From Isoetes taiwanensis (Eukaryota > Streptophyta > Lycopodiopsida > Isoetales > Isoetaceae): 64,000 nt of DNA. The stretch lies in NCBI GenBank assembly GCA_021234155.1, contig JAJEKV010000077.1:2008827-2072826 (forward strand), read 5' to 3'. This document shows positions 5,473-30,604 of the stretch, one piece after another. Made by a program: the position numbers and the translations under genes. Under the pieces are notes generated by a model. The model was not told the DNA's origin and searched no databases. It saw only the letters and a program-made list of their open reading frames with translations. Each line of letters opens with the position of its first letter. Position 1 is the first letter of the stretch.

Positions 5473-5820
5473 ATCATGTTATGATGCGACTTCTTTTAAA
5501 GCAGATTATGGCAAAACTGGCATCATATGATGCGACTCCTTCAAAAGTTATTTTCATTGAATGTGAATGAGGTTCACAAGATGCTTGGGCATTCATACTT
5601 CAATCTAGTACTTATAACAAATGTTGAGGGGGGGGGATGTGCATGCGATATCGATATCGATAAAGTAATCAAACACTAGGTGGCAAAGCAATGTCCGTAG
5701 CTTGACCTCTTAAATGGCTAGAGTTTGTCATTTGTGTTACCACCGGTGATGGCAAAACTGCGGACATCATATGATGCGACCGTAAATCGTTATGGTAAAA
5801 AGCGTGGCATCATATGATGC
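5473..5820. repeat. Dispersed palindromes GCATCATATGATGC
   Basis: The 14 bp perfect palindrome GCATCATATGATGC occurs at 5,520 and 5,807. An ACATCATATGATGC version lies at 5,764 and a degenerate one, ATCATGTTATGATGC, at 5,473. All four are followed by a conserved right flank beginning G, with the CTCCTTCAAAAG extension at 5,520 and 5,807. This looks like the same short element copied within 350 bp. Confidence 0.85.
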
Positions 5821-6049
5821 GGCTCCTTCAAAAGCATTCGATTGAATGTATTACTTTGAGTGTATCTATTTTGATCTGTCTCTAAGGAGTTTGCTATTGC
5901 ACATCTTGATGTGCTGCTTGACCAAAAAGGCATTTGCTATAATGAATAAATGTAAATAGTTGTTTGCAATGTAAATAATTTGTTTGTCTTGATGCTATTA
6001 TGCCTTTTAGTAATTATTATTTAGGCCCATTAGTTAGGGCCGAAGGCCC

Positions 6050-6280
6050 AAAATTTTTTAATATAACAATCAACACACAACTATCATTAACATTATTAAC
6101 ACAAACCATTGTATTTCACACATTTTAAATTAAAATCCCCTTAAACCCCCTTTGGTTTGGGTGCATATTCACGCGGGGGTTTACGTGAGGGCGCCGAGAG
6201 CTCAAAAATATATTTACAATACATGTACAAAATTAACACCATTAAGTACATTCTCTCAAACCTTATAGTATTTTGTAAAC
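6050..6280 (+). mobile_element. Single arm of foldback-type element (family of 12.4-12.9 kb)
   Basis: The segment containing TTAAAATCCCCTTAAACC and CCCTTTGGTTTGGGTGCATATTC aligns to both arms of the foldback element at 12,433-12,850. It extends to a shared GAG..CTCA and AAATCAACACCAT-like tail. Only one arm is present here. Diverged; probably a solo or truncated copy. Confidence 0.7.
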
Positions 6281-6354
6281 TTTAATATACAGTATACAAA
6301 AACTTGTACATGCATACCCCACAAACGAGGATTGCTATGTACGGTCCAGATCTT

Positions 6355-6510
6355 GGAATAAAGGGCAAATGCATAGACCAGCACAATGAGATACCTTACA
6401 TGGTTATTTTTGTCGAAAGCAGATTGAGGAGCAAAGATGTTTACCTGTAAGTGCAAATTGCAACTCTAAGAATGCCATAAGAATGGAACTGCAATCGTGT
6501 CGATGCTACA
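6355..6510 (+). repeat. Diverged direct repeat, right copy
   Basis: Partner of 3,645-3,810 in direct orientation. It shares the CACAATGAGAT and GCAAATTGCAAC blocks in the same order, with several indels between them. Confidence 0.7.
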
Positions 6511-6799
6511 CAGAAGAACTGGACAGGACATCAGGTTGCACTGCTGAAAAATAGGTCCAAAATACAAAATACATATCTTTGTAATCTACAATAGTACATC
6601 TTATAACAAAAGGGCAGAGTGGTTTAATGCTTTTTTTCTTTTAAAAGATTATCGTTAAAGAAGCTACTGGGATATACATGACAAAGAAGAATGAAAAAGG
6701 CATCGTTCATCCTTACTTCTACTGTGCTGTCCTAAATCTAAATCATGGCATATTGTCAGTCATTCCATATGGAGCAATATATAGATTTGCACATATTAT

Positions 6800-6899
6800 C
6801 CCTCTTTTCTTCAAGACTCATGCAGATTGATATTCAAAGTGATGATCTTCCCTCTTTTCTTCAAGACTCATGCAGATTGGTATTCAAATTTATCTTCCT
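6800..6899. repeat. Two-copy 50 bp tandem duplication
   Basis: CCCTCTTTTCTTCAAGACTC begins at 6,800 and again at 6,850. Each is followed by the same CATGCAGATTGRTATTCAAA, so the period is 50 bp. Confidence 0.9.
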
Positions 6900-7854
6900 G
6901 CTTTGCTAATAAATCAAGAGTTATTTGCACACATGATAGAACCTCAAGCTTCAGTATGATGGCTCGTTTTTTATGGAAGAACTGTTGAGAAAACTACCTT
7001 ATGTTCCAAAAATCCAATACTACCGGGCCTTTTTATTTCCTCTTGATATGGCTCCAATGCAGATTCTGCTCAATTAGATCGGAACCTATTTAATCTAACA
7101 ACACAAAATGATTTTTTTTGTGCATTTAGGGTCTGCTGTACTTTATTTTTTCTCCCCTAAGAGACATGCCACAAGAAGAAGCATTCACTGATTGGAGCAT
7201 GCATATATAATGTAAGAAATCCGAACGTACAAAGACAAAACCAAATAGGAATCCATCACAATGTCTGAGTGCAAAAGCTTTTGAGGAAAAACTTACTTTC
7301 TAGGCAGGGAATGACCTCTTAGATCTGCACCAATGCATCAAACAACATAACAAGCATACATAAGCTTGATCACAAGCATATGAAATGTTGAGACGTATCC
7401 TTCTCCAAGAAAAGCTTCTGTTATGACAAAATTAGGGCATTTAGTTATGACTTTTAAGCTAAAGCAATGCCTTCAAAGAAATGTGGAATTGTTTATGAAG
7501 TCGTATTGGCAAAGAAATCGTGGGATTAAGCCAATTGCCCAGAAGTTGAACTTGCAATAGCGTGATGCTTAGTTAAGTTTTGTATCATCTGCAATAGTTA
7601 GTTTCGCTGGCATCAAACAAAATCATACCGGAAAATTCAACGGATGAACTAATAAAGTTTAACGGTAGCTTTCACCATAGTAAAAAAGGAAATCCAGGAA
7701 AACCGATGCAGATCTTCTGTAAGTGGCTACATACAAAATTTTCTAGATCTTTAAAGAACATATGCACAAACGGGAGCATTGTCTTGTTACAACCCTATCA
7801 TGCCATCAAAGCAAAGGAGGAAAAACTTACACAAATACGGTCTTGCATTAGGTT

Positions 7855-7936
7855 GCTCTCCAGATTCGAGTTTCCCAGTGGCTCTCCAGATTCGAGTTTC
7901 CCAGTGGCACGGTGAGCTCTCCAGATTCGAGTTTTC
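7855..7936. repeat. Three-copy short tandem repeat
   Basis: CTCTCCAGATTCGAGTTTCC is repeated with period about 26 bp, twice nearly perfectly. A third, slightly spaced copy ends 5 bp before the ATG of the H3-tail-like ORF at 7,941. Confidence 0.9.
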
Positions 7937-7940
7937 GACA

Positions 7941-8042
7941 ATGGCAAGAACCAAAACACACAGCGTTAAACAAACCGCTAAATCCACGCTCCAAAATAAG
8001 TTAAGAAAATCAAGGGTTGAGATGCTGCACAGACTATCATAA
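7941..8042 (+). pseudogene. Short ORF resembling histone H3 N-terminal tail
   Basis: A 33-codon ORF starts MARTK, has a short insert, and continues with KQTAKST and then lysine/arginine-rich residues. This is the order of the canonical H3 tail (ARTKQTARKST). The DNA aligns with the start of the H3-like ORF at 20,056: ATGGC.AG.AC.AAAACA and ACAAACCGC blocks match, and this copy has about 12 extra bases between them. No histone-fold core follows; the frame stops at 8,040-8,042 and AT-rich repeats take over. I read it as a broken second copy of the 20 kb ORF. It is short enough that chance resemblance cannot be excluded. Confidence 0.4.
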
Positions 8043-10045
8043 AACGCCTTTATTATTATATATAGATAGATAGATAGTACATGCAAGGTACATCTAAAAT
8101 AAGAATTATAGTAATCAAATAGTCTTCTGGGACAAAAGGAATTGTCATGATGACGAAACCTTGTGGTTTAGAATCATTCTAACTAAGTAGGTAACCCATA
8201 ACTATATTGAAATAAATGATAACATAATATGTATATCAATCTTAGATGGTTATATATGTCAGCTAAGGCTAGTAAATTAATGCGCTAAGTAAGAAGCATA
8301 TAACCTCTTAAGGAGAGAATAAATATGACGTTGTGTACAACGCCATTGAAAGGGTGGACCATTTTTCTTTTGAAGAAAGTGGGAGGGCTCAATCTTATGA
8401 TTGAACGTACTTGCATCAAATTGACCAACCCGTAGAATAGAGTTCACTCCGGCAATGGCCGAAGCGAATAGAGCGTAAGATAGATAGATACCTTAGTGCT
8501 CAGGAGGCCTTCAACGTGCGAGACTGACGTAGTAGCTAACTACACCAATGAAGTGGAGCAAAACTATGGGAGAACAATGCAACGACCAAGTCATCTCCAA
8601 ATTACTCCACCTTGGAGGCTCAATGGGTGGATCGCCCTAGCCTTAGGTAAGGTGTGCCCATGTATAATAAGCTTTAATGTGTCTTATTGATAAGTTAAAT
8701 ATAGATCCTAATAACCTGCATAGAATTGGTCATGCGTATATGTATCAATAGGGAAATAAGTTAAATAACAATGGTAATGTGAGGTAGCATGTTAATTAAT
8801 CCTTCGCAAGGATGCAACTCCTTCCAAGGATAGCTATATGACCTCGGGTCCTTATAAATATAAATAGAAAATAGAATTCAGAGATACCTAGGTGCATCTT
8901 AGGGATATACTTCCAAAGGGTAATGGGACCCAAGGAAGAGAATAAGAAGCACATCTAATTCTTGTGTATGATAATTAAAACCTTGTCTATGTAACAATAG
9001 GTCTAAATCGGTTATTGTTTAAATAATCGCGATCTAAAAGTCGTTAAATATTGTAAAGCTTAGAGTAAATATAATTGTACTATCGGAAGTAATGTATCCG
9101 ATACTACTATATAATGTTAATATAAAAATATTACCGTAAGGTATTTAATATAATTGCATGCATTAAGGGAAGTACAAACGGGGATCATGCGGGGGTCCAA
9201 CAACGTGTAATGTTTACTTAAGACGTTAACGGATGCTAGCCGACATGCAATGCTTAGTTAGTGGAGGAAGTACGAAGACATCCTCTAGCCAAAGAGGGGC
9301 GGCATAAGAGCATAGCGACAAGCTCTGCATCGACAAGGTCAGATATGCAGATATGCAGAAATGCTCGGCAAGGTCATCTCCGATTTATGTCTAGATTAAT
9401 TTCATGTGTAGTTAAGATTAATCACGATGCACCTATGATAGGTATGGGTTGCATGCGCAATTCGATGATGAGACCACTACGGTGATCTCTGGGGCGTGGT
9501 GTAATGTCATTGTAGGCATGACCGCGGTTCTGCTTGGATGAGTTGGAAAGTAGATTAAAAAGTCTACTTCCGCCCCACGGAAGTAGGCGACCTCGAGATA
9601 AGAGGTCATTCGGGAATGCATTGATAGGAAAGCACCTCTAGTCAATGCCTACGGGGAGGACCCTATCCTTCACGCCCCATATCTGGGGAAGGACCCTATC
9701 CTCCACACTTGGGCAACTAAAGGTGTAGGCATGAGCCGCATATAGGCATTATAGTATTTGTCTCCACGGCCACGATGGAAGAAGTATCCTCTTCCCTACG
9801 GAGATTAGTCATGCATTCATGTAGATAGATGGGGTGGTTCCCTTATAACCAACTTTTACATTAATATTCTAGCGCAGTGTGAATTGAGGCCAATGAGAAT
9901 AAGAACCCGGGGAGTCGCATCACGAGCACTTGTATAGATAGTTCTAGAGTAGTTGTGATTTCTACCATTGAAACTAATCGCTTAAATCTTGTGTAAGATA
10001 GTAAGTATGTAATTATAGATATTGTAAAATTCACGCAGTGATTTC
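8043..10045. other. Intergenic or retroelement interior, no domain seen
   Basis: Contains a short GATA repeat (8,061-8,078). The sequence is GC-richer from about 8,480 to 8,660 and from 9,180 to 9,950. Because a polypurine tract and LTR-like segment follow at 10,583, it may be eroded interior of an LTR element. No reverse transcriptase, integrase or gag motif is legible. Confidence 0.35.
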
Positions 10046-13800: not shown

Positions 13801-15160
13801 AAAAAAGGCTAAAATCAATGGCTCAGAAATGGTGCACTCTAGATGTACGCATTAGTACATCCATTTGAATACATCACGAAATCATAGGAAAACCTTAGTG
13901 AAAAGCGTACAAAAACACAAAGAAAACCCCCTGTTATTATGCTACATATTGAATCAAACCATGAATTAGAATTTTGCTTGCCATAGTCGAATCGGCATCC
14001 CAGGAGATTGGATTGAAAAAAACACGACCAAAATGAGCGCAGAGATTGAATCAAATACCCGAAGCTCAAATTTGCTCGGTGTTCTTATATTTGCAGAGAA
14101 ACCAAAGATCGGCCTTCTTAAAATGCAATCGCACATCGTGCACTCAAGCATTTGCTCAAGCATTTTCAGGGAATGTTAGAAAATACGCTCAAACATTTCA
14201 GGCAATGTTAGAAAATGACCTTTATTACCATGTTAAGAGACATTTAGAGAAATACGGAAACATTAATACACTATGCATGTTATTGTTTGCCTTAGCATTT
14301 ATGTTGGCATTTTGAATTCAACCTTTCCATCAAAAGGAAATACCTATGACCATATTCCTATTGTCCAATGATGAAATTTTTTATGTTGGAATTGTGAGAT
14401 GTGAATAATTCCCTTTAAGGCATAACTATGTCCAGACTAATTTGGAATGAATTGACAAATAGGATGTATGTGATTATGTGATAGTTTTGATGAGTTTCCA
14501 ATTAGTATTTCCAGGAAGCAAACCAACCCAAAACAACCAATGGTCTCTTAACAGATTTGTTTCTCAAATGGTCCATTCCGAATTCAAAATAAATCAACCT
14601 CCCAATCTATGCCTAAAAGCAATCTCTCTTTTCTACATAATCTAGCTTGATTTGAAAAACAAAGGAACCACAAGAATAAAGCCATAAACATCATATATGA
14701 AAAAAAATAAAGTTCTCCATTGTGCACAAATTTGACTCTACACAGGGCGCTAGCGCTAAATACTTGTATATAAATATTATTAATATTACATATTACACCA
14801 TTGAACATGACATCCCACATATCGTGGAATTGAGCCATTGAATTAAAACCCCCCCCCCCCCCCAAAGTTGTTTTTGTTAATATTCATGCAAGGCATCCAT
14901 CAAGAGGGCTCGCATGGCAGGTTGGATGTCGATTTCTGGACGATCTTGGCCATTGTTAAGTGTGACTTATTTTCTAGCAAGCTTTTGTTAACTGTCAGTT
15001 TCAAATATAGAATTAAACCAAAGATTGTGAAGCGCATTATACACACGTATAGTACATATATACGGTGTATGTCTTTGGAGTTCCTCGCCATTGGATGCCC
15101 CGCCAACATCACAAAAATGGTTCTGTCGCAAGAAAACGATTATAAGTATACGGCCATTTT

Positions 15161-16440
15161 GCTATGGTTTGCATATGATTGTGTTGTTGTATTTGTGTGA
15201 GGGTATGCTAGTAGTATTTCTAGAGCACGTGGTGTATTTCTAGTTAGTCTGCATTCCCACCCTATGGTTTTGCATACACATGTGCATGCGTTACACGCAC
15301 TCAATGCATGCACACAGTGCATGCATAACATTCATATATGCAGTGCATACATGTTGAGCCCTCTTTTACTTAGCACCTTGTAAGGCACATGCTTACTTTT
15401 TTTTTTCTTTTTTTTTTTTTCTTTTGCGGTTACATAGGTCTTTTCACATAAGAGGCTTATTTTTTCTCGAGCGTCGAGAAACACCTAAGGTTTGGAAAAA
15501 CGTGTGCAATCTTTAATGGTTTTTTTTTTCTTCCAAATAATTAATTTCTCTTTGTTTTAATGTTCTTGGCATATTTATTTGCTTTTGAATTTGTAGTGAC
15601 AGGTGATAATGGTTTTGTAATCATGGGTCAATTGCAGATAAACATTGATTGTGGGTGTAGCCTTGTTGTGTTGGCTCTATAACTATCTATAATGGGTTCA
15701 GTTCCTTGAATTATTGATGTCCTCATTCCTTATAATTGCATCACAACTATTTTGCGTCACGTGAAACGTATGAGTATAGGGTCATTTTGCTATGGTTTGC
15801 ATATGATTGTGTTGTTGTATTTGTGTGAGGGTATGCTAGTAATATTTTTAGAGGATATGGTGTATTTCTAGTTAGTTTGCACTCCCTATGGTTTTGGCAT
15901 GCACACGTGCATGCATTACATGCATACAATGTATGCGCACAGTGCATGCATAACATACATACATGCAATGCATGCATGTTGAGCTCCTCTTTTACTAACA
16001 ACATGCAAGGCACATGCTTATCTTCTTTTGCGGCCGTATAGTCCTTTAACACAAGAGGCTTGCTTTTTCTCTAGCCTCAAAAAACACCTAGGGCTTGCAA
16101 ACTTGTGCAATCTTTCATGTTCCTTTTTCTCCAAGGTAATTTGTTTTAATGTTCTTGGCATATTTACTTGCTCTTGAATTTGCAATGATAGGTGGTCAAT
16201 GGTTTTGTATTCGTGGTCCAATCCCATGGGTTCTAATGTTGTCGTATCATTGTTTTGTTGTGGTATTACGGGACAAAATCTGTCTCCATGGCTCTTTGTT
16301 GAACATCAATTATAGGTGTAGCGTTGTTGTGTTAGCTCTATAACTATCTTACGCTATTATAGTGGGGTCAATACCCATTCTTTGAATTTATTGATGTCCC
16401 TTTTCCTTATGATTTCATCACAGCTGTTTTGTATACCAAA
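15161..16440 (+). repeat. 628 bp tandem duplication
   Basis: GCTATGGTTTGCATATGATT starts at 15,161 and 15,789, and the following 600 bp corresponds block by block: TGTGTGAGGGTATGCTAGTA, an ATGCAT-rich core, TTGCGG, TCATAA. The copies differ by substitutions and poly-T length, so the duplication is not recent. Confidence 0.85.
15280..15352. repeat. ATGCAT-rich alternating purine-pyrimidine tract
   Basis: About 70 bp dominated by overlapping self-complementary words such as GTGCATGCG, CAATGCATGCACA and GTGCATGCAT. Sister tracts lie at 15,897-15,982 and, reverse-complemented, at 29,787-29,876 and 30,365-30,432. Such sequence favours cruciform or Z-DNA structures. It also contains multiple CATGCA (RY-type) words. 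Confidence 0.8.
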
Positions 16441-16545
16441 TGCTCTCAAATGTTTCTATTTATTTAACAAAGAAATAGGAAGTCACAACTATAAGTGTGA
16501 TTTGGTTTGTAGTATTGGCGTTTTTCAAACACATTGTTGGGGTCG

Positions 16546-16621
16546 TCACCACTCACCACACTCGTCACCACTCACCACAAAAGTCACCACTCACCACTCA
16601 CCACTCACCACACTCACCACT
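16546..16621. repeat. (TCACCAC)n minisatellite
   Basis: TCACCACTCACCACA-type heptamers repeat for about 75 bp with occasional spacer bases. Confidence 0.95.
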
Positions 16622-16965
16622 ATTGAGGTGGTATAGGGGATTATATACCGTATATGGAGGGATGTACGCACATGCACGCGTGCAGGATATTTGCACGTAT
16701 GTATTGTGGGCATTATGATTACTGTGTTATCTGAGCAGAGAGAGAGGGAGAACAGAGAGACGGTGTATTGAGAGAGATTATTTTTGCTTGATCTAGCTAT
16801 GGAGATGATGATTCTTTGTCTTGTGCATTGCCTTGATCTGATAGATTGAGCTTGGATTGTTGGGTTTTTCATCCTTCTTGCAAGGTTAGAGTTCAGGCTC
16901 TAACACACATGATCCTATGTCAATGGGTCTATACATTTATTAATATTCTTAATATGATTCTAATA

Positions 16966-17639: not shown

Positions 17640-19122
17640 AGGGTAGTACCCTAGGGTACAACCTTGTGACCCATTATATTGCACATGTTAAGGCCACATG
17701 CTAATATAATATCCTTTTTGCCATGTGGCAATAGCCTATTGACAAAAAAAGGGCCCAGCCCTAAATTCGTGGGATAAAGGGGCATAAACCCTAAAAGGGA
17801 AACCCTTTCGCCTCAGCCCCCCATAAGTCGGATTGGAGCAAAGATTGGACGCCTTCGCTGCGGAACAAGAAAGCAAGAGGAACCGAATTCCTTAGTGGCG
17901 CCGATCCAAGCCGCCAATCTCGAGATTCAAAAAGATGGACGCCTTCTAGAGGAGTGGGAGCCAGCCAAGAAGCGGGTTAGTGGTTGATCCGGATAGTTAG
18001 ATCCGAAGTTTTCAGCCCTCATTCCATAGAAGTTTAGTATTCATTCTTAGCTATAGGCACCCCCTACGACCCTAAGAATGAGAGAGAGAGACACTATCAA
18101 AGGAACCTAACCATGTATGATTAGGTAGGTTAGAATAGATGTATTCTATTATTTCCGAGTTGTAGATGATATCAGGACATTCTATGCCACTCTTGTGTAT
18201 TGGGAAGGGGTAGAGACCCAGAGCCCAAGTAGTTGGATGATCCTAGTTTTAGCCCATTAATTCCCAATTAATGCGGGTTCTGCGGCATAAGAGCCCGCCG
18301 GGTCGTGGGTGGCGGAGCTAGACCGGCCGACAAGGGAGGTCTTGTCCAATCACGGCTGATCCTCCGCATGTAGCGACGTCGGGAACGTTGTGAGCAAGGC
18401 CTAATACCGGGCACTGCGCGGAGGGAGGGTGGCTTGGGCTCACACCTCTTGGGCGGATGCCGCCTCCTAGGGGTTCAAGTCGTGAGCACGAAAGCAAAGG
18501 GCTCTCCTCGCCGCCTGCGTGGTTGGCATGAACCTTCCGGAGGGGAGCGATCCCTCCTCGCCTCATCGGGCCGGGAGATGCAACCCAAAGAGTGAGCCCT
18601 CTCGGCTATTCACCCGCAGTTACTTTTGCCAGCTCCAATACTTTTTCACCCATCTCAGTATGCAATGTGAGGGGCGGATGGAGGGACTACCCAACTGCAT
18701 ATGTTCCTATGCCAGCCCAAATCCATTTGCCATGAATTCGCCTCAGATTGCTATCCGGAGACCCCAAGCCGTCACGATCCCCATCACCCCAACTTGGGTG
18801 GATCTTCCCTATGTTATGTTGATGCACCGATGTGTGATGCGCTATCGCGGATATGGTGGACCACCCTTCGAGGTGGGTATGTTTATTATCTCCATTGATG
18901 TCATGTGCTCATGTTTTGTTTACGCTTCCGCTGTTAGGTCGACATCTCAGGGAGACTCGGATGAATGACACGCCCATTCTTCCCCGCCGGGTTCTTGGCC
19001 ACCATCGAGCCCGATGTTAGGTGGATCGGCCTCACATCGACGGGCGATGTCGGGTTTGAGGGATGATTCCAGCTTGTTGTATACCATCGGGTATCGTGAT
19101 ATGAGCCGGGTCGCCACAATGG
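17640..19122 (+). mobile_element. Possible 5' LTR and leader of Ty3/gypsy element
   Basis: The segment precedes a primer-binding-site-like sequence and has LTR-like traits, including AGTACCCTAGGG, GGCCACATG and AAACCCTTTCG, similar in order to the LTR-like segment at 10.6-11.1 kb. A 149-codon frame at 18,519-18,968 shows no known domain. I did not find a matching 3' LTR after 27.6 kb, so the extent is a guess from position. Confidence 0.3.
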
Positions 19123-19135
19123 TGGTATCGAGCTC
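19123..19135 (+). promoter_or_regulatory. Candidate primer-binding site (initiator tRNA-Met type)
   Basis: TGGTATCGAGC differs from the usual plant retrotransposon site TGGTATCAGAGC by one missing base. It lies upstream of, and on the same strand as, the gag and pol remnants, as expected. The 4 kb gap to gag is large but is filled by the H3-like ORF region. Confidence 0.4.
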
Positions 19136-19350: not shown

Positions 19351-19414
19351 CCTCCAAGAGTGCGCCAGAGCATGTTAGGTCCGCACTCCAATGGGTCTCA
19401 CAAGACTTTAGAGT
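19351..19414 (+). repeat. Nested stem-loop repeat, copy 1
   Basis: First of five copies of CTC.AAGAGTGCGCCAGAGC ... CAAGACT.T.AGAG. The outer arms pair. The inner GTTAGGT/ACCTAAC stem is lost in this copy. Confidence 0.75.
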
Positions 19415-19558: not shown

Positions 19559-19626
19559 TCTCTAAGAGTGCGCCAGAGCATAGTTAGGTCATTTACCTAA
19601 CACCTTTCTCTCAAGACTCTTTGGAG
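19559..19626 (+). repeat. Nested stem-loop repeat, copy 2
   Basis: Outer arms TCTCTAAGAGT and AAGACTCTTTGGAG. The inner stem GTTAGGT/ACCTAAC encloses loop CATTT. Confidence 0.85.
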
Positions 19627-19774: not shown

Positions 19775-19837
19775 CTCTAAGAGTGCGCCGTGGCCTAGTT
19801 AGGTCCAACCTAACCCCCGCTCACAAGACTCTTGAGG
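19775..19837 (+). repeat. Nested stem-loop repeat, copy 3
   Basis: Outer arms CTCTAAGAGT and AAGACTCTTGAGG. The inner stem GTTAGGT/ACCTAAC encloses CCA. Confidence 0.85.
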
Positions 19838-20055: not shown

Positions 20056-21267
20056 ATGGCTAGGACAAAACAAACCGCCCCAGAAGCCCGTGAAGGAAGA
20101 TAAGCCCTACCAAGTACTCGCCACCAACGTAAGCTTAAAGATGCTGACGAAAAACTCAAGGTCGACATGGAGAGGCGGCCTAGGTACTATAGGAACTTGG
20201 AAAAGAGGCGCAGAAAGAAGAAAAGGCCAGAAGAAAGAAGAAAAGGCAAGGAGAAGGGAAGAAAGGGCCAAGAGAAAGGAGGAGAAGGCGAGAAGGAAAG
20301 CGGATGAAGAAATTGCAGAGGCGGAGGATCACCAATGGCGAGAGCAGAGGACCAAGAATAGGAGGAACCCGATCCAAAGGGAAAAGGGTAATGACTGAAG
20401 AACCCAGACCTAAGAAGAGGAGAACCTCAACCGGCCAGAAGTCATAAACGAGCCAACCGAGGGCTTAACAACCCCATCCCGCCGAAGACACGGGTGATGT
20501 AGCAGACTTTTGGAGGAAGTGCTTCGGAACCGGAGAGTCATCACGTAAGAAGGCTAACCCTCATCCCGACATAGAAGAACCCCTGTGAAGAAGACCCACT
20601 CCCCAGCTCGTGACCGGGGCAGACACAGATTGACCCCATCCCAGCCCATTGCCCCCACCATTTTCGTGTAATGGCAAGAGGCAAAGAAACTAGGGTGATG
20701 AGAAAGCAACCACAAAGAAGGCAAACCAAGACAGCCGTGGACTCTACACTCTAGGGCCCGAGAGGAGGTACAAGAAGGAATTAGCCAGCATGATATACAA
20801 GAAGATGTACGATGAGTACGCAGCCTTTTATTACCACACACGCTTTCGTCAAGTTTGTCGGGCGAGGGCGGCCAACTCGGTAGAAGCATTCCACCAAACC
20901 TCCACCGTAACCTTCCTGAACCCCCCAAGAAGCGCCTATGAAGAGATCCCAAGACTCTCCTTTGCAAGAGCCTCGAGAGAAATCCGCCACTTCCAAAGGA
21001 GCTACTGATTTTCTGATCCCAGAGCAAAAGATTCCGTGAGGTTCGTCCGAGAAATCTTGTGGGAAGTTCTACCCCAACAAGCTTAGTAACCAATGACATG
21101 TTACCGCTTTACAAGAAGCAAGAGATGGAGGTCGCACAACATTTCGAGGATTCACCGGCATGCACTTCCATGCAAAAAGAGTCACGCTTCAACCAAAGGA
21201 CATGAAGTTAGCCAAGTACATCAAGAGGAGAGAAATAGAAGAGAACTTACTCTTTTTTTGTAACTAA
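20056..21267 (+). pseudogene. Histone H3-like ORF, decayed, with long basic insert
   Basis: The reading opens MARTKQTA, identical to the H3 tail, then runs into about 900 bases of lysine/arginine-rich, coiled-coil-like sequence. The histone-fold core follows: SREIRHFQRS at 20,973-21,002 (H3: LREIRKYQKS), TDFLIP after a one-base shift, VRFVREI ending near 21,056, TALQEA at 21,103, and HAKRVT with PKDMKLAKYI from 21,169. Segment lengths equal canonical H3 within one residue: 16 residues from VREI to the base before ALQEA, and 16 versus 17 from ALQEA to HAKRVT. The LIP...VRFVREI stretch is closer to centromeric H3 variants than to H3.1. Frameshifts and stop codons make it a pseudogene as sequenced. 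A second MARGK start (20,671) lies 300 bp before the core. Stem-loop repeats flank it (three before, two after). It lies between a possible PBS and gypsy gag on the same strand, so it could be an extra retrotransposon ORF or an inserted host pseudogene. Confidence 0.75.
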
Positions 21268-21382
21268 TGTGCTTATATGTGATGTATGAAAATTTTGAAT
21301 AATAAAGATATATAGTCGTTTAAAAAATGTGTATTTCATTAGGTACAAGATAGATCTGGAGCAATGCGACATTTTTAATAAC

Positions 21383-21443
21383 ACTCCAAGAGGCGCCAGA
21401 GCATAGTTAGGTCCCAACCTAACCCCTCCTCGCACTCTTAGAG
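21383..21443 (+). repeat. Nested stem-loop repeat, copy 4
   Basis: Located just 3' of the H3-like ORF. Arms are ACACTCCAAGAGGCG and CGCACTCTTAGAGT; inner GTTAGGT/ACCTAAC encloses CCCA. Confidence 0.85.
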
Positions 21444-21659: not shown

Positions 21660-23470
21660 CCCCACCTTCGGGTCCATAACTTGAGCTAGACATATCCAAA
21701 TTGGCCAAAATTTGTTGCATTAGAACCCTAAAACTGTGGACAAGCCATTTTCTAGCTTCAAATTAACCTAGAAACATTAGCCTTCATCCCAATTACCAAG
21801 AGTTTTAGAAACCCTAAAATTTTAGGGTACAAATTCCCTATATATACCCTCATAACCCCTAAACCGCAAACTGCACTGCTCCCCACAAGGGCATCTCCCC
21901 AGCTTCCTCTGGGCCTCCCCGGTTCCGCTTGATATCGGCAGACGCCTCGCCATGGCTGCATCCTTCATCACAGGCTTGGTATAGCTTCCCCCACATTGTC
22001 GAGGTAGATGTCAACATAGTATTCCAAGTCTTTCGAAAAGAATTTGACTGCTCGGGCAACTCAACTCCAATCCCTTCCACCGCCAAGTCCTGCAAGAATT
22101 CCAAGAGAAAGTAGTTCCTAGCTTGCAAGAAATACCACATGCATAGGGTACTTTGTACCAAAGATCAGATTGCAAATAGCCCTTAGTCATGTACCCAACA
22201 TTGCCAAAGTATTGCAAAACGTAATCAACCGCTACCCAAGCCTACATGACCCTAACCAGCAATAGAAACAGATTTTTCTCTTACAACACAACTTTAGCAC
22301 TATATCTAGTCTATAGGGTCAAAACCGTAGTAGGCTTAACCATCAATTCAGCCACTTGAGATCACACTTTGGACGCAAAGAAACTTAACGACTACCGCTT
22401 GAGTATGAACAGACCATAGCGTAAGCATCCAAGAAAGTGAGGACTCCGAAAGGAAAGTGAGGATGACATGGATGTGGACCCAGAGGAGGAACGCCGTGGA
22501 AGGTAACAAGACATCACCCGCCTGGTTTCCGACAGACCACCCCGAGGATTGCACAACCAATCGGCCGGGAATAACAAGTCTAGCACCCATCATAGTCAAG
22601 GCCAAGAGTACTTGTTGCTAAACGACATCAAAACCTCCCCAATGCGTGGACGAGGTTATGCCGCGATTTAACTCCTTCACCTTCTACTCAAGCAAATTTG
22701 GATTTAGAAGACTCCATCGACCAAGAAATCCAAGACTTTCCGTGCAAGTACGAGAGGCGCCTACATACACTGTGACACACCATGTCGACATTGAAGCCTA
22801 TGGCACTATCGAGGCATGATGACGGGAAGAACTCCCACAACAGGAGGAGTTTGTGGCACTTCAAGAGCAGATGGGAATAAGGGGAAGACAACAAGAGTAC
22901 TTCAAGGGGAGTCTTCTTCTTCGCAAGAACAAGTATCAAAATTCCAAGGGAGAGCCACAAACTTGACAAGTGTACTAACGCTTTCCGTGATTACAAGGAA
23001 TTAGTCAAGTACCTGGTCGATCAAGATGCATCAAGGCACAGTGGGTACCTCGTGAGCACGGGAGGAGTACCGTAGCAAAGCACTCAAATATTATCTTCCG
23101 CTTCCTAACTGACGCAGAATAATAATATTTCACAAGCGCTCAGCCCACGCGAGAGGGAAGAAGTCGGCGGATGCTAGTAGCACTTTCTGGATTTGGCATG
23201 CACGCATCTCCACTATCGTAAAAGTTGACCATGTCATTTTGGTGAAGCGGAAAACAGCCTTGGGCATTTTTCGACTTTCCGGCGGTACCCCACCTTCGAC
23301 AAGGTAAGTTATAAGGAAAGAAAGCTCATACCTCCCATAGACGGGTGGAAGAGCTAGCATTTGCCATCCGAGGGGATCATTTTAGGATATACTCGTGAAC
23401 TTGGGAAGTACAAGAGGTACAGCCCAAGTAAAGAAGTTTTTGAGGATCACCCCGGACTATCAGTAAAATC
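21660..23470 (+). pseudogene. Decayed coding-like region between H3-like ORF and gag
   Basis: Several + strand frames read as plausible protein, for example an FQVFRKEFDC segment near 22,030 and a DYKELVKYLVDQDASRH segment near 23,000, joined by frameshifts and stops. I do not recognise a domain. Position and strand suggest it belongs to the same element as gag and pol. A TATATATACCCTC box lies at 21,840. Confidence 0.35.
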
Positions 23471-23769: not shown

Positions 23770-24600
23770 AGAGGAAGAAATCTCGCAGATGAGGTCAGAT
23801 CTGCAAGAAATCAAAGCCATGTTGGCAGGCAGGGGAAGAAACAGGCAAGACCAGAATGTGCAACCCCCAGAGGCCCGCTCTCAACACAAAGGAAAAGAGA
23901 AAAAGAGGAGCCGGCGCAGATCTTCTAGCTCCAGCCCAGACAAATTTCTGACTCAAGCTCTGAGTCTGAGGAGGAAACAGTAAGAACAGCCGGAAGGGAA
24001 GAAAGAGTAGCGGTAAAACAGCCAGGCCAATCCGACTACCAAAAGAAGGTCGACTCGGCCTTAAGTAATGTTTGGAAGGCACGAAAACTGGAACAATTTT
24101 TCTGCTAAAACAGATCAGGGATGGCAGCCGAAGCATGGCTAGACGAGATGAGTGAGTACGGAAATGCTTACGGCATGAAAGACAAAGACAAGGGCAGGGT
24201 AGCCACTGCTAACTTGAAAGGGGCAGCCCGTATTTGGTGGAGGGGCTATGCTAAAGCCCATGGAATGAGCAGAGACAAGTGCAGGTTTACAAAGTTCGCA
24301 AGGGCCTTCAAAAAGCACTATGTCCCAAGAGAACACAAGTGCCACCAGATGCAAGCCCCACGTGTTGCAAACAGGGAACAACCGTACGTAAATATATGAA
24401 AGAATTCATGAGACTAAGGTCAGATGTGCAAGCTCAAGAAGAGGAGAGAGCTGTGGAAGGCTATGTGGAGGGCCTGAATGAGGACTACGGAGATAGTCGA
24501 GTCCGAACCCGGGCCCGATCGGAAGTAGCAAAGGCCCGAGCCTACAAGGCACGGACCCCTTTAAAAGTGAACCTGGGCAAGTGGTAGGATAAAGGAAAAG
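23770..24600 (+). pseudogene. gag: Ty3/gypsy gag remnant
   Basis: Frames at 24,121-24,399 and 24,385-24,587 encode the retrotransposon gag (capsid) core. AWLDEMSEYGN leads into a KGAARIWWRGY motif, then FTKFARAFKKHYVP, and after a frameshift RKYMKEFMRL and VEGYVEGLNEDYG. The W-x(n)-GAA-x-x-WW pattern and the (Y/F)xxEFMRL block are typical of this family. An arginine/serine-rich stretch precedes it (23,880-23,960). I see no intact CCHC zinc knuckle downstream. At least two frameshifts break the ORF, so it is not functional. Confidence 0.8.
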
Positions 24601-25239
24601 CATATGGAGGCTAGAGCCCCGAGGGCAACCGGAATTGCCACACCGCCAAGACACCATACCTCGGAAACCAATGGAAACAGCCGCAGAAAAAGCAGGTCGC
24701 CTTCAAAGATAAAGGACAAGGGGGAGGCTCAAATTATTCAAAGACAGCCAAGCAGCCTCAACTCCATTCCAAAGAAAAGCGGGCAGGAATGTATAGAAAA
24801 ACAGCTTGAAGCTTCCTGGTAGGTTTCCAAATGGGGGCATAGAACACACAACCGCCTCGCTCGGATGAATGCAACTTTATGAAATGGGAGGTTGGGAGAC
24901 CCCACGAATAAGAAGAAGAGGAGAACTAATGACGCGACTATATCCATGGTGAGTGTCACATCTTTGCCGCCATAGATACGTAAAGCCAAGAGAGTTGCAA
25001 TTGGGTAATATCCATCCATTGGTAAGATAGCCGCCAAATCCTTTATAGTCCCTCATAGACTATGGTAGTTCCCCGCAATTTCGCGATCACCAAGGATGGC
25101 TGAAATGCTAAAGTTGAAAACAAAGTGAAGTCTAAACCCGTGCCGTGAGTGTTATTAGTGAGCCATCAAAGCACACCGCCCAAGAAGAGGGTGAATTTCA
25201 ATATAGACTTACCTGTATCAATATTGAAATGGGGGCGTA

Positions 25240-25300
25240 AATCATGAACATAGGAAAATATGACCTCATCATAGGTATGGAATACCTCAACCCAAAGAAA
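25240..25300 (+). pseudogene. Protease-to-RT linker remnant
   Basis: A short + strand stretch reads GKYDLIIGMEYLNP, which matches the conserved (Y/H)DxIxGMDWL motif that closes the aspartic protease domain in Ty3/gypsy polyproteins. The catalytic DSGA was not found upstream in this decayed copy. Confidence 0.6.
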
Positions 25301-25544
25301 AGCACAAATAGATTGTGGGGAGCTTAAAGGTAAAGCTAAATAAACCAACGGAAAATCATAGAAATCTCGTGTAAGCAAGTGACACCTATAATGCAATGCA
25401 TGTCAAGTAAGAAATTACTTAGATGCATCAAAAGGGAGCAAGTTGCATACATCTTCAAATTAGAACTTCACAAGAAGAGGCACCTGAAGATAAAGAAGAC
25501 AAGCCACAAGCTGTGTAGCCAAGTTAATAGAGGAGTTCCATGAC

Positions 25545-26560
25545 TTGTTCCCCGATGAAATCAAGGAGCTTCCGCCATATAGGGGAGTGGAGTGCGAAAT
25601 TGCACTTGTGCACTAAGCCCACCAAGAAGGCACCATATAGAATGACGGCTCACGAACTATCGGAGTTGAAGATAGATAGATAGATAGATAGATAGTAGTT
25701 TTAACGCCACGCCCACTAGGGCAAGAGATCCAACCGACATGTGACCACACACCACACTACATTGCTTGGTTGGGCCCCCGCCCAACCACCTTACATTGCG
25801 CCTCTGGGATTTGACCCCCAACAGCATCGAAAAGCGAGCTCGGGCGGCCTCAACTCGAGACCACATTGCTAATGAACTAGTGTGTTACCACTAGACCAAG
25901 TTGAAGAAGCAATTGCAAGAGCTATTAGACCTAGGGTTCATAAGACCTAGTGTTCTCCCGCTTGAAGCCCCCATCTTATTCACAAAAAGAAAGATGGAAG
26001 CTTGAGGATGTGTATTGACTATCGCCAATTAAACAAACACACAATCAAGAACAAGTATGCCTTACCCAGAAAGCGTAGATGACCTGATGGATCAGCTACA
26101 AGGTGCCGTGGTCTTCCAAAATAGACTTAAGGTCCGATATCATCAAATCAGAATCAAGGAGGAAGATATTCACGAACGGCCTTCCTCAACAAGATATGGC
26201 CACTATGAATTCACAGTGATGCCATTTGGCCTATCAAATGCTCTCAAAGAACGTTCATGAGACTCATGAACGATATCTTTCGGGAATTCCTTGACACATT
26301 TGTTATCGGTTCTTCGATGACATTTTGGTGTACAACAAGTCCCTAGAGGAGCATATCAAAGATCTGAGAAGAGTACTTTGAGAAGTCGAGAAGACACCAT
26401 CTTTTTATGGTTGTCGAAATGTCATTTCGCCACCGAAAAGAGTGGAATACTTGGGGCATGTCATATCGCCAGACTCCGATTCCAATCAACCCCGCAAAGA
26501 TCCAAGCGTTGATTGAATGGCCACACCAAAGAACATACACGGTGATGAGAAGTTTTGGGC
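25545..26560 (+). pseudogene. pol: Ty3/gypsy reverse transcriptase remnant, split by a SINE
   Basis: The recognisable order begins LPPYRGVECEI (25,568) and PYRMTAHELSELK (25,635). After the inserted SINE it resumes with [15 protein letters not shown], then [21 protein letters not shown] (26,070), YHQIRIKEEDI, RYGHYEFTVMPFGLSNA (26,195-26,250), and RVEYLGHVISP (26,440). These are RT motifs of Ty3/gypsy elements. The catalytic YxDD region near 26,310 is frameshifted. Several stops and shifts show it is dead. Same strand as gag and the H3-like ORF. Confidence 0.88.
25673..25898 (-). mobile_element. tRNA-derived SINE with (GATA)n tail and 9 bp TSD
   Basis: The 226 bp insert splits the gypsy RT. 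The target AGTTGAAGA is duplicated at 25,664-25,672 and 25,899-25,907, and removing the insert plus one copy restores the [11 protein letters not shown] reading frame. On the minus strand the element begins at an A box (TGGTCTAGTGG), carries a B box (GGGTCAAATCC), and ends TAAAACTACTATCTATC with a (TATC)n microsatellite tail instead of poly(A). That indicates pol III transcription and mobilisation by a LINE recognising a non-poly(A) 3' end. A-to-B spacing is about 75 bp, longer than usual. Confidence 0.93.
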
Positions 26561-26569
26561 TTAGTAGTG

Positions 26570-27125
26570 TATTATAGAAAGTTTGTCAAGAACTTTGCTA
26601 AGATAGCAAAGCACCTTTGACTGACCTCACCAAGGCCAAAAAGATAAAAGACCTGGGTGGCACATGGCAAAAGAAGGCTCGCTGTGATTCGAGAAGTTGA
26701 AGGAAGCCTTAACAACCGCCTCGCCTTAACATTGCCCCGGGATCCAGAAGGACAAACTCCGTTGCAACCGATGTTAGCAAGATCACTTATTAAGAGTGAG
26801 CGCCTTTTAATGCAAGAGGAAAGAGTCGTAGAGTATGCATTCACCAAGATGAACGACGCAAACTCGCCAGCACCACACATGATCGTGAGCTATTGGCGCT
26901 GGTAAGAGTTTTAAAGATCCGAGACACTATCTATTGGGAAGAAAGTTCCAATTAGATACCCACCACCGTAGGTCTACAAGACATCTTCACGCAAACCATT
27001 GTTGAATTTGAGGCAAAGAAGATGGATGGAGTTCCCCGGAAGAGCACGGTCGAGATTGTGTACAAGCCGTGGAAACTCAATGTGGTTGCAGATGCTCTGG
27101 CCAAGGCACCCCTTAACAACAAGAG
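26570..27125 (+). pseudogene. pol: Ty3/gypsy RNase H remnant
   Basis: After the RT region, + strand frames give FEKLKEALTTA-like sequence (26,690), then THDRELLALVRVLKIRDTIYW (26,875-26,940), the family's (Y/T)HDKELLAIVxALKxWRHYL motif. LNVVADALAKAPLNN (27,078) matches the NxVADALSR end of the domain. Multiple frameshifts. A following frame (27,125-27,331) encodes the charged linker to integrase. Confidence 0.82.
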
Positions 27126-27339
27126 TGCATTGCAATGCCATATCAACACTCACCAATGAGTTTGGCAAGAAAATAGAAGAAACGTTGCCAACGGACAAGG
27201 ACTTCCAGGAAGTATGGGCAAGCCTTTCTAAAGAGGCAAGATCGGACAAAGAGAGAGAAGCCTTCAAACATTTTAAGAAGGAAGGATTCTCATTGATATT
27301 CCTATGTAATATGGCCCCATCCAAGCCATAATTTCCTCG

Positions 27340-28689: not shown

Positions 28690-30542
28690 CCTCGATTATA
28701 TGTACAATGAGCTTTACAACCTTTGGTCTATTTCCGTATTTGAAACTAACAGTTAACAAGAACTTGCTAAAAAATGAGTCGCGCTTAACAATGGCCAAGA
28801 TCACCCAAAATTGACATCCAATGGTCCGAGCCTACTAATGAACAAGTGGGAGGTCTGGGGGTTTTAATTCAATGGTTCAATTTCCTGATATGTGGGATGT
28901 CATGTTCAATGGTGTAATATGTAATATTAATAATATTTATAAATGGACTCTGCATATGTAAAAAAAAATTTTTTTGCCCCTCCGAGGTTTAGGGGTTGTT
29001 TTGTAGAAGATGAAATGATGTAGTGGAACTACTTAGAAAATGGAATGCGGAATATGAAACAATATTAAGATAAGGTAAAATAAAGATTTTTTAGAAGAAC
29101 ATAGAATGCGATCATTCATATTATCTGTCAATCATATTACTAAAAATAATGGATGTATAGAATCATATTAAGAATAATAATAAATATATAGACCCATTGA
29201 CATGTGATCATATGCTTGAGAAACACCAATGCTACAAATCAAATCACACCACTAGTTGTGGCTTCCTATTTCTCTATTAAATCAATAGAGACACTTGAGA
29301 ATAGAATACACTTGAGAGCATTTGGTATACAAAATAGTTGGAATGAAATTATAAGAAAAAATGACATTAATAAATTCAAAAAATGGGTGTTGAACCACTA
29401 TGATAATGTAAAATAGTCATAGATCTAACACAACAAGGTTACACCTATAATTGACGTTCATCAAAGAGCCATAAAGACACATTTATCCCATAACACCATA
29501 ATAAAATAATGATACGACAACATTAAAACTCATGGGATTGAACCATGATTACAAAACCATTGGCCACCTGTCATTGTAAATTCAAGTGCAAGTAAATATG
29601 CCAAGAACCTCAAAACAAAGAGAAGTTGATTACCCTGGAGCAAAGGGAATACGAAAGATTGCACATGGTTTGCAAACTCTAGGTGTTTTTTGACACTAGA
29701 AAAAAAGTAAGCCTCTCATATGAAAAGAAGCGGCCGCAATAGAAAGTAAGCATGTGCCTTGCATGGTGTTAGTAAAAGAGGAGCTCAACATGCATGCATT
29801 GCATGTATGTATGTTATGCATGCACTATGTGTATACATTGTGTGCATGTAATGCATGCACGTGTGCATGCTAAAACCATAGGTCGGAATGCAAACAAACT
29901 AGAAATACACTATATGCTCTAAAAATTACATACGACAACACAATCATATGCAAACCATAGCGAAATGGCCATATATTTATACGTTTTACGTGAAGCAAAA
30001 TAATTGTGATGAAATTATAAGGAAGAAGGACATCAATAATTCAAAGAATGGGAGTTGAATCCACTATAGATAGTTATAGAGCCAACACAACAAAGCTACA
30101 CCTATAATCAATGCTTATATGGGATTGACCCATGATTACAAAACCATTACCCACCTATCACTGCAAATTCAAGAGTAACTAAATATGTCAAGAACATCAA
30201 AACAAAGAGAAATTAATTACCTTGGAGAAAAGAGAACATGAAAGATTGCACACAATTTTGCAAATTCTAGGCGTGTTTCGATGCTCCAGAAAAAATAAGC
30301 CTCTCATGTGAAAAGACTAAGTAAGCATGTGCCTTACAAGATGTTAAGTAAAAGAGGGGCTCAACATGCATGCACTGCATGTATGAATGGTATACATGCA
30401 CTATGCATGTAATGCATGCACATGTGCATGCAAAACCAAAGGGCGAGAATTCAAACTAACTAGAAATATACCACATACTCTAGAAATACTACTGACATGC
30501 CTTCCCACAAATACAATAACACAATCATATGTAAACCATAGC
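28690..30542 (-). mobile_element. Dispersed repeat, inverted relative of 14.75-17.26 kb
   Basis: Reading the minus strand recovers the blocks of the forward copy, including the GAACATGACATCCCAC block (28,890) and two tandem copies of the ATGCAT-rich unit (CCATAGC ends at 29,960 and 30,542, about 582 bp apart). Block order here is A'-D'-C'-B' instead of a simple mirror image, so at least two element copies or a rearrangement are involved. No coding domain. Confidence 0.65.
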
Positions 30543-30604
30543 AAAACACAGCTCGGTCTCTCCATTTCTTATTCTCACCACATCGGCCCTCTTCCCTATA
30601 TCAT

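What the first reader, a model, noticed from the sequence alone, without database searches (positions are those of the whole stretch)
20056..21267. Histone H3-like ORF carried upstream of gypsy gag
The core aligns with H3 in order and spacing (REIR..Q.S, VRFVREI, ALQEA, HAKRVT, PKD..LA), and the ORF opens MARTKQTA. It is separated from its core by about 300 codons of basic sequence, unlike any normal H3. It sits between a PBS-like site and gypsy gag on the same strand. Some plant Ty3/gypsy lineages (Tat/Ogre) carry an extra ORF before gag, but a histone-fold ORF there would be new to my knowledge. Such a protein could package element DNA or RNA or target centromeric chromatin. That function is inference.
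Basis: partly seen in the sequence, partly recalled or inferred. Interest (0 to 1): 0.88.

Follow-up and report, generated by a model that had tools for sequence, protein, structure and literature searches.

The report
Retrotransposon that carries histone H3
A plant genome holds a family of jumping genes that carry their own altered copy of histone H3, a core protein of chromatin, and selection has kept that histone intact, so the parasite probably acts on the chromatin it lives in.

Summary
Window 20056-21267 has the H3 tail start (MARTKQTA) and H3-core pieces in order, but the copy is decayed (17 stops in frame 1). It belongs to a repeat family ("A", 41 matched places). A better-kept copy matches PF00125 at E=2e-21. 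A larger related family ("B") has ORF1s of 411-459 aa ending in a complete H3 core, 76-81 of 92 residues identical to host H3. Layout: LTR, tRNA-Met-type PBS, ORF1 (H3), ORF2 (unknown), gag, pol with chromodomain, LTR. One 13.2-kb copy has 1.63-kb LTRs and a 5-bp target duplication. An LTR-start 27-mer occurs 748 times. Of 47 such starts, 16 have an H3 motif at the expected spacing and strand; slid controls average 0.055. H3-core dN/dS is 0.01-0.03. So this is a chromodomain Ty3/gypsy element with a captured, selected H3. CENH3 and retropseudogene readings are not supported. That the fusion enters host nucleosomes is inferred. Precedents are a fungal hAT transposon and DNA-virus H3s. Nine literature searches found none in an LTR retrotransposon.

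The parts
17882..19118 (+). Remnant of the 5' LTR of the window element (3' part; the LTR start was not located)
   Evidence: 82% DNA identity to L042, a family-A copy whose LTR end aligns with the family-B LTR; direct blastn to the family-B LTR at 18207-18311 and 18645-18931...CGCCACA end.
19120..19135 (+). Decayed primer-binding site (TGGTGGTATCGAGC; intact family form TGGTATCAGAGC, initiator-Met tRNA type as recalled)
   Evidence: Sequence; same place in L042, TGGTATTAGAGC.
20056..21267 (+). ORF1 remnant, family A: H3 tail start, about 290 codons of basic or coiled sequence, H3 core; broken by stops and frameshifts
20056..20079 (+). H3 tail start MARTKQTA (MARTKQTARK in L032, L033 and L034; MARTKQTACK in L035)
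20961..21240 (+). H3-core remnant, split over two frames
   Evidence: intact reading in L034: PF00125 E=2.1e-21. Ends approximate.
21953..23470 (+). ORF2 remnant (unknown function); ends inferred from position in a better-kept copy
   Evidence: L041 holds the matching 540-aa open frame, hit by the family-B ORF2 profile at E=7.3e-19. In the window itself the similarity is weak: tblastn 22477-22638 E about 0.03, profile E=0.81.
24034..24476 (+). gag remnant
   Evidence: tblastn with a family-B gag piece, 55% identity, E=3e-41; Retrotrans_gag E=4.5e-4 and 6e-4, both below the cut-off.
25139..26537 (+). protease / reverse transcriptase remnant
   Evidence: tblastn, 25-71% identity by piece, best E=4e-32.
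26555..27307 (+). RNase H / start of integrase remnant
   Evidence: tblastn, 41% over 264 aa, E=9e-42.

Best explanation
WHAT IT IS (shown): the window holds a decayed copy of a plant Ty3/gypsy LTR retrotransposon with an integrase chromodomain. The element carries two extra genes between its PBS and gag. ORF1 is a histone H3 fusion and ORF2 is a protein of unknown fold. The H3 part has been under strong purifying selection while the element multiplied. HOW IT WORKS (inferred): ORF1 protein pairs with host H4 and is deposited in host chromatin, or in nucleosomes formed on newly made element DNA. Its H3 core keeps nearly all core residues, but its tail and its chaperone-recognition site are changed. 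In family B the normal K4/K9/K27 tail is replaced by a new N-terminal domain plus coiled region. In family A the first nine residues of the H3 tail are kept in front of about 290 other residues. Rough odds: selected gene of the element 0.95; enters nucleosomes with host H4 0.6; benefit by evading silencing or steering integration 0.35.
For: One LTR-to-LTR copy with PBS, PPT and a GTGGC/GTGGC target duplication. LTR similarity upstream in 18 of 20 family-B copies, PBS in 14 of 20, gag downstream on the same strand in 16 of 20; these 20 were chosen for long open histone frames. Not chosen that way: 16 of 47 exact LTR starts have an exact H3-motif match at the expected place and strand, 0 on the opposite strand; 200 slid controls mean 0.055, max 1. 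Gag in 4 of 4 family-A copies looked at; homologous LTR and ORF2 in families A and B. H3-core median dN/dS 0.032 (66 pairs) and 0.013 (21 pairs); N-terminal domain 0.11-0.12. In family A, mismatches among L032-L035 in the core fall 12, 6, 74 by codon position (summed). H4- and DNA-contact residues kept in family B. Host SAVL/TAVL at H3 87-90 is FAIL, FAVL or HAIL in family B; singly carried viral H3s likewise often have xAIL there (PMC9145170, section 9). No ARTKQ in 20 of 20 family-B ORF1s.
Against: No expression, protein or chromatin data. AlphaFold2 gave no confident fold for the H3 part (pLDDT under 50 over about residues 300-442) with this shallow alignment. All 20 copies were chosen for long open frames among the best histone scores, which lowers H3-core dN/dS; saturated pairs were dropped, including all 84 core pairs between the two main subfamilies. 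31 of 47 LTR starts have no exact motif at the expected place. Family A has lost several DNA-contact or modified residues (R63 to P, K79 to D, F84 to V). L032/L033 do not show the third-position excess (4, 1, 2).
Confidence: 0.6

Rival explanations
1. ORF1 acts in the particle or pre-integration complex: the H3 part helps to compact or tether element cDNA, and the N-terminal domain and coil mediate assembly with Gag or integrase.
For: ORF1 is the first gene after the PBS, next to gag on the same strand; it has a long predicted helix at 186-240.
Against: No H4 or other histone gene was seen in the element, and an H3 alone does not wrap DNA (established knowledge). A core at 83-88% identity to host H3 with dN/dS 0.01-0.03 points to binding of unchanged host partners.
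Confidence: 0.15
2. Poison or decoy: ORF1 competes for host H4 and chaperones, or enters nucleosomes as a dominant disturber, and so weakens silencing in general.
For: Chaperone-recognition site changed in all 20 family-B copies. Viral precedent: bracovirus H4 with a long tail alters host chromatin (PMC9145170, passages).
Against: An element inherited with its host gains little from broad harm to it; no data here.
Confidence: 0.15
3. Centromere targeting: ORF1 is a CENH3-like histone that lands the element in centromeric chromatin.
Against: Loop-1 spacing is that of H3 (gapless), while CENH3 is two residues longer. Family B branches with canonical H3s in the tree (only 100 columns; long branches flagged). 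The LTR starts listed on contig C907 run from 2.9 to 51.9 Mb, not in one block (capped list).
Confidence: 0.05
4. Passenger or pseudogene: a host H3 gene or cDNA fell into an element once and was copied along without function.
For: The window copy is broken, and window-to-copy core mismatches are nearly even by codon position (36, 38, 43; summed). Transposon-amplified gene pieces are common in plants (PMC3538342, passages).
Against: Open ORF1s across at least three subfamilies with dN/dS well under 1; 1,263 exact H3-motif matches, host H3 genes included; H3 at the same place in the diverged families A and B.
Confidence: 0.03

Closest known systems
Plant Ty3/gypsy chromoviruses (Tekay, Reina, Galadriel clades; chromodomain type II)
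   Same: gag, protease, RT, RNase H, integrase and chromodomain in order; tRNA-Met-type PBS; 5-bp target duplication.
   Different: Two extra ORFs between PBS and gag, the first an H3 fusion. Clade not assigned here. The CHD paper (PMC3350952) has no 'additional ORF' in its text (find).
H3L of the fungus Pyrenophora tritici-repentis, carried by a hAT DNA transposon (PMC3538342, passages)
   Same: A mobile element that carries and multiplies an H3-like gene, next to an ORF of unknown function.
   Different: DNA transposon; 26 near-identical, recently expanded copies; no fusion of this kind described in the passages seen. Here: LTR retrotransposon, diverged subfamilies, long-term selection.
Single H3s of DNA viruses: Manila clam xenomavirus, Dishui Lake phycodnavirus, sylvanvirus and others (PMC9145170, section 9)
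   Same: Captured H3 with 73-87% identity in the fold; several have extended tails; xAIL at the chaperone site. Family B: 83-88% and FAIL, FAVL or HAIL.
   Different: DNA viruses with extensions of 35-68 residues there; here an LTR retroelement with about 300 or more added residues.
Orchid Ty3/gypsy element with a captured AlkB-type RNA demethylase (PMC9289625, passages)
   Same: A plant gypsy element that gained and kept an additional ORF from its host, with a plausible part in host control.
   Different: Different domain (2-ODD), 25-kb element in Phalaenopsis. No histone domain among the gained domains in the passages seen.
Extra ORFs before gag in Tat/Athila/Ogre elements (recalled; review PMC7264820 searched for 'histone': 0 occurrences)
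   Same: Extra ORF upstream of gag.
   Different: Those lineages lack the integrase chromodomain (recalled), and no histone is named in that review's main text.

Membership tests
LTR retrotransposon, Ty3/gypsy | LTRs with TG..CA ends, PBS, PPT, target-site duplication | tested here: met
   L019/L029: LTRs of 1633 and 1632 nt, TGTGACG..CGTCACA, TGGTATCAGAGCC one nt after the LTR, PPT-like TCTAAGGAGGGGAGAA, GTGGC on both sides. Full ends tested in this one copy.
LTR retrotransposon, Ty3/gypsy | gag-PR-RT-RNase H-integrase order | tested here: met
   L011 open pieces: Retrotrans_gag/Ty3_capsid, RVP_2, RVT_1; then RT_RNaseH, Integrase_H2C2, rve (rve at 29.6 bits, under its 32.6 cut-off).
Chromovirus | Chromodomain after the integrase | tested here: met
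   PF00385 E=6e-8 in L011 and 4e-8 in L031, both over the cut-off. Not tested in the window copy, whose pol remnant ends before it.
Chromovirus | RT clade (Tekay, Reina, Galadriel, CRM) | not tested
   No reference RT set was used; named protein hits were 28-50% identical.
Tat/Ogre/Retand | Absence of an integrase chromodomain | tested here: not met
   Chromodomain present. The defining feature is recalled; PMC11963269 calls Retand non-chromovirus (abstract in listing).
Histone H3 | Complete H3 core (PF00125), closest to H3 | tested here: met
   Family B: PF00125 E=2.5e-41 to 3.2e-42 in 3 scanned; best PDB matches are H3. Family A L034: E=2.1e-21, best PDB matches H3.3/H3.2/H3.
Histone H3 | Forms nucleosomes with H4, H2A and H2B | not testable with these tools
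   Needs biochemistry.
CENH3 / CENP-A | Two-residue-longer loop 1 than H3 | tested here: not met
Retroprocessed host H3 pseudogene | Near-identity to a host H3 and own target duplication | tested here: not met
   H3 core at 44-45 matches over 85-92 aligned residues in A (L034, L035), 76-81 of 92 in B; the ORF lies inside larger elements. A duplication round the ORF itself was not looked for.

The most novel reading that the evidence does not exclude
An LTR retrotransposon lineage makes its own nucleosomes: ORF1 replaces H3 in host chromatin or on new element DNA, marks that chromatin, and the element's other proteins (chromodomain integrase, ORF2) read the mark.
Probability: 0.25. Interest if true: 0.96.

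Novelty: new variant of a known kind. Interest (0 to 1): 0.88.

Why it matters
Host silencing of plant retrotransposons works largely through marks on the H3 tail, and chromodomain elements are thought to choose sites by reading chromatin. An element that supplies its own H3, selected over many rounds of copying, would turn that relation round: the parasite writes chromatin instead of only reading or suffering it. It makes testable whether a mobile element can change nucleosome composition to its own benefit, and what minimal part of H3 a parasite must keep. It also warns annotators: this one genome has over a thousand copies of an H3 motif, most of them probably not host genes.

Full report
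The window lies in an unnamed 1.66-Gb assembly, G000:C1086:2008827-2072826. Three MatK_N matches, two of them with stops, show plastid-derived DNA of a plant. I could not name the species.

Observation. The open pieces alone give at best PF00125 E=6.7e-4, under the cut-off. The DNA of 20040-21275 matches 41 places in the genome, the window included, at 78-87% identity apart from itself; 408 candidates were seen and 40 scored, so this is a lower bound on places, and two of the rows may be one copy. I read four of these copies (L032-L035). They give the family's protein: MARTKQTARK (MARTKQTACK in L035), about 280 residues of lysine- and arginine-rich and acidic sequence, then ALREIRHFQRS..FLIPRAAFQRFVREI..LALQEAAE..HAKRVTLQPKDMKLAK. 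L034 is open for 387 aa and matches PF00125 at E=2.1e-21. I call this family A.

A larger relative. A six-frame PF00125 search scored 150 of 8,705 first-look candidates. The top 15 rows (164-165 bits) look like host H3; the eight fetched are canonical H3. The other 135 rows score 144-155 bits. I fetched 20 of them, chosen for open frames of 450-494 aa. All 20 have an ORF1 of 411-459 aa from the first plausible ATG: a new N-terminal domain, a charged or coiled middle, a basic linker and a complete H3 core at the C terminus. I call this family B; it has at least three subfamilies, about 43-46% identical to each other over the whole of ORF1. Core identity to host H3 is 76-81 of 92. Against PDB the best match is H3.3, gapless through the fold.

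The element. Of these 20 copies, 18 have LTR similarity upstream, 14 a TGGTATCAGAGC primer site within one mismatch, 13 an open ORF2 piece of 250 aa or more (L011's frame there is gag-pol), and 16 gag on the same strand downstream; in a 17th (L009) only RT was seen, behind a second LTR. Copies without LTR similarity: L024, L028; without gag: L009, L012, L016, L017. Pol carries protease, RT, RNase H, integrase and a chromodomain. In L019 plus L029 both LTRs are seen (1,633 and 1,632 nt), with primer site, polypurine tract, and GTGGC on both sides; LTR start to LTR end is 13,231 nt. The LTRs differ by K2P 0.035, roughly 1.4 My at 1.3e-8 per site per year (rate recalled).

Not chosen by open frame. 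The exact 27-mer at the LTR start occurs 379+369 times, reversed-pattern control 0. A degenerate pattern for AIHAKRVTIM occurs 660+603 times, control 0; host H3 genes are included. On the contigs where both capped lists are complete, 16 of 47 LTR starts (15 distinct motifs) have the motif on the same strand at 2.5-5 kb after, or 5.5-11 kb before, the LTR start; none has it on the other strand; 200 slides of the motifs gave mean 0.055, maximum 1. The spans were set after I knew the layout. The other 31 have no exact motif there: solo LTRs, decayed copies or changed motifs. Searching with the N-terminal domain alone (150 of 2,628 candidates scored), 27 of the best 50 have open frames of 400 aa or more, and at least 23 have a listed histone match just downstream on the same strand (lower bound, since only 23 histone rows were entered).

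Families A and B are one lineage. In 4 of 4 family-A copies looked at, gag lies at the same distance behind the H3 ORF on the same strand, 85-94% identical to the window in the aligned part (L037-L040). One family-A copy has a 540-aa open ORF2 found by the family-B ORF2 profile at E=7.3e-19, and its LTR aligns with the family-B LTR up to the primer site (best E=8e-39). The window's 17882-20029 matches that copy at 82%. So LTR, PBS, ORF1 (H3), ORF2 and gag-pol is the shared layout; gag and pol pieces of A and B differ by about half their residues. The tree puts family B as one clade beside host and other H3s (93/99), with A on a long branch whose place is unsure.

Selection. Median dN/dS in the H3 core is 0.032 and 0.013 within the two main subfamilies (66 and 21 pairs), 0.11-0.12 in the N-terminal domain and 0.12-0.18 in the linker; dS is 0.6-1.3. 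Saturated pairs were dropped: all 84 core pairs between the main subfamilies and 26 of 66 N-terminal pairs within one. Choice by histone score and open frame biases the core value down; the N-terminal value is biased by openness only. In family A, core mismatches among L032-L035 fall 12, 6 and 74 on codon positions 1, 2 and 3, against 36, 38 and 43 for pairs with the window copy (sums). So the lineage was selected, and the window copy decayed. One pair, L032/L033, shows no excess (4, 1, 2).

Anatomy and mechanism. Family B keeps E50, K56, R63, R69, K79, R83, F84, H113, K115, R116, T118, K122 and D123 in the three subfamily examples tabulated; family A changes R63, P66, K79, D81, L82, F84 and Q85. 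At H3 87-90 the host has SAVL or TAVL, family B FAIL, FAVL or HAIL, family A DMLL. PMC9145170 (section 9 read) says this site decides the assembly pathway and that virus H3s carry SAIL or TAIL. No family-B ORF1 has ARTKQ; one of 20 has ARKS in the linker. AlphaFold2 folds residues 10-230 fairly well, but not the H3 part, with this shallow alignment; the H3 assignment rests on sequence. My reading, that ORF1 pairs with host H4 and makes altered nucleosomes that favour the element, follows from which residues are kept; no step of it was measured.

Known or not. Nearest: a fungal hAT transposon with an H3-like gene (PMC3538342, passages), DNA-virus H3s (PMC9145170), an orchid gypsy element with an RNA demethylase (PMC9289625, passages). 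A review of additional ORFs in plant LTR elements has no 'histone' in its main text (PMC7264820, find). Searches for an H3 in LTR elements; none listed one. The library lacks most subscription papers and all preprints, so absence is not proven. Because a transposon-borne H3 and gypsy elements with captured ORFs are each known, I rate this a new variant of a known kind, although a retroelement with its own selected H3 was new to me.

Noticed in passing
window 14769-16962 and 28701-30546: Inverted repeat arms (80-94% complementary pieces, each with about 600-nt internal tandem copies) flank the decayed element on both sides. Large inverted-repeat element with the retroelement inserted in its loop, or paired nested copies; unexplained.
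   Followed up: no
window 19352-19371, 19560-19579, 19775-19794 (and weaker 21379-21413): Repeated motif CTCTAAGAGTGCGCC..GC spaced 208-215 nt just before the H3-like ORF, each followed by its partial complement (CTCTTAGAG-like), so hairpin-like leader repeats; chance expectation 0.08. An exact-core search found it in no family-B locus held then.
   Followed up: partly
L009 nt 129-2363 and 5912-8163 (element orientation): LTR plus leader repeated at 95.6% with ORF1 and ORF2 but no gag found between: tandem or recombinant arrangement sharing an LTR.
   Followed up: partly
window 43241-46048: 83% identical over 2.9 kb to the stretch behind ORF1 in L016 (nt 5523-8326): another dispersed repeat.
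   Followed up: no
window 41669-42154, - strand: 161-aa open piece (..FMADEAQANWTAIREVF..) that reads like a MULE-type transposase (by eye only).
   Followed up: no
L041:523-2142 (ORF2); L025:4449-5834, - strand: ORF2, conserved in both families, has no Pfam or PDB match; by eye it may hold two copies of a short strand-helix unit (AlphaFold2 of low confidence).
   Followed up: partly
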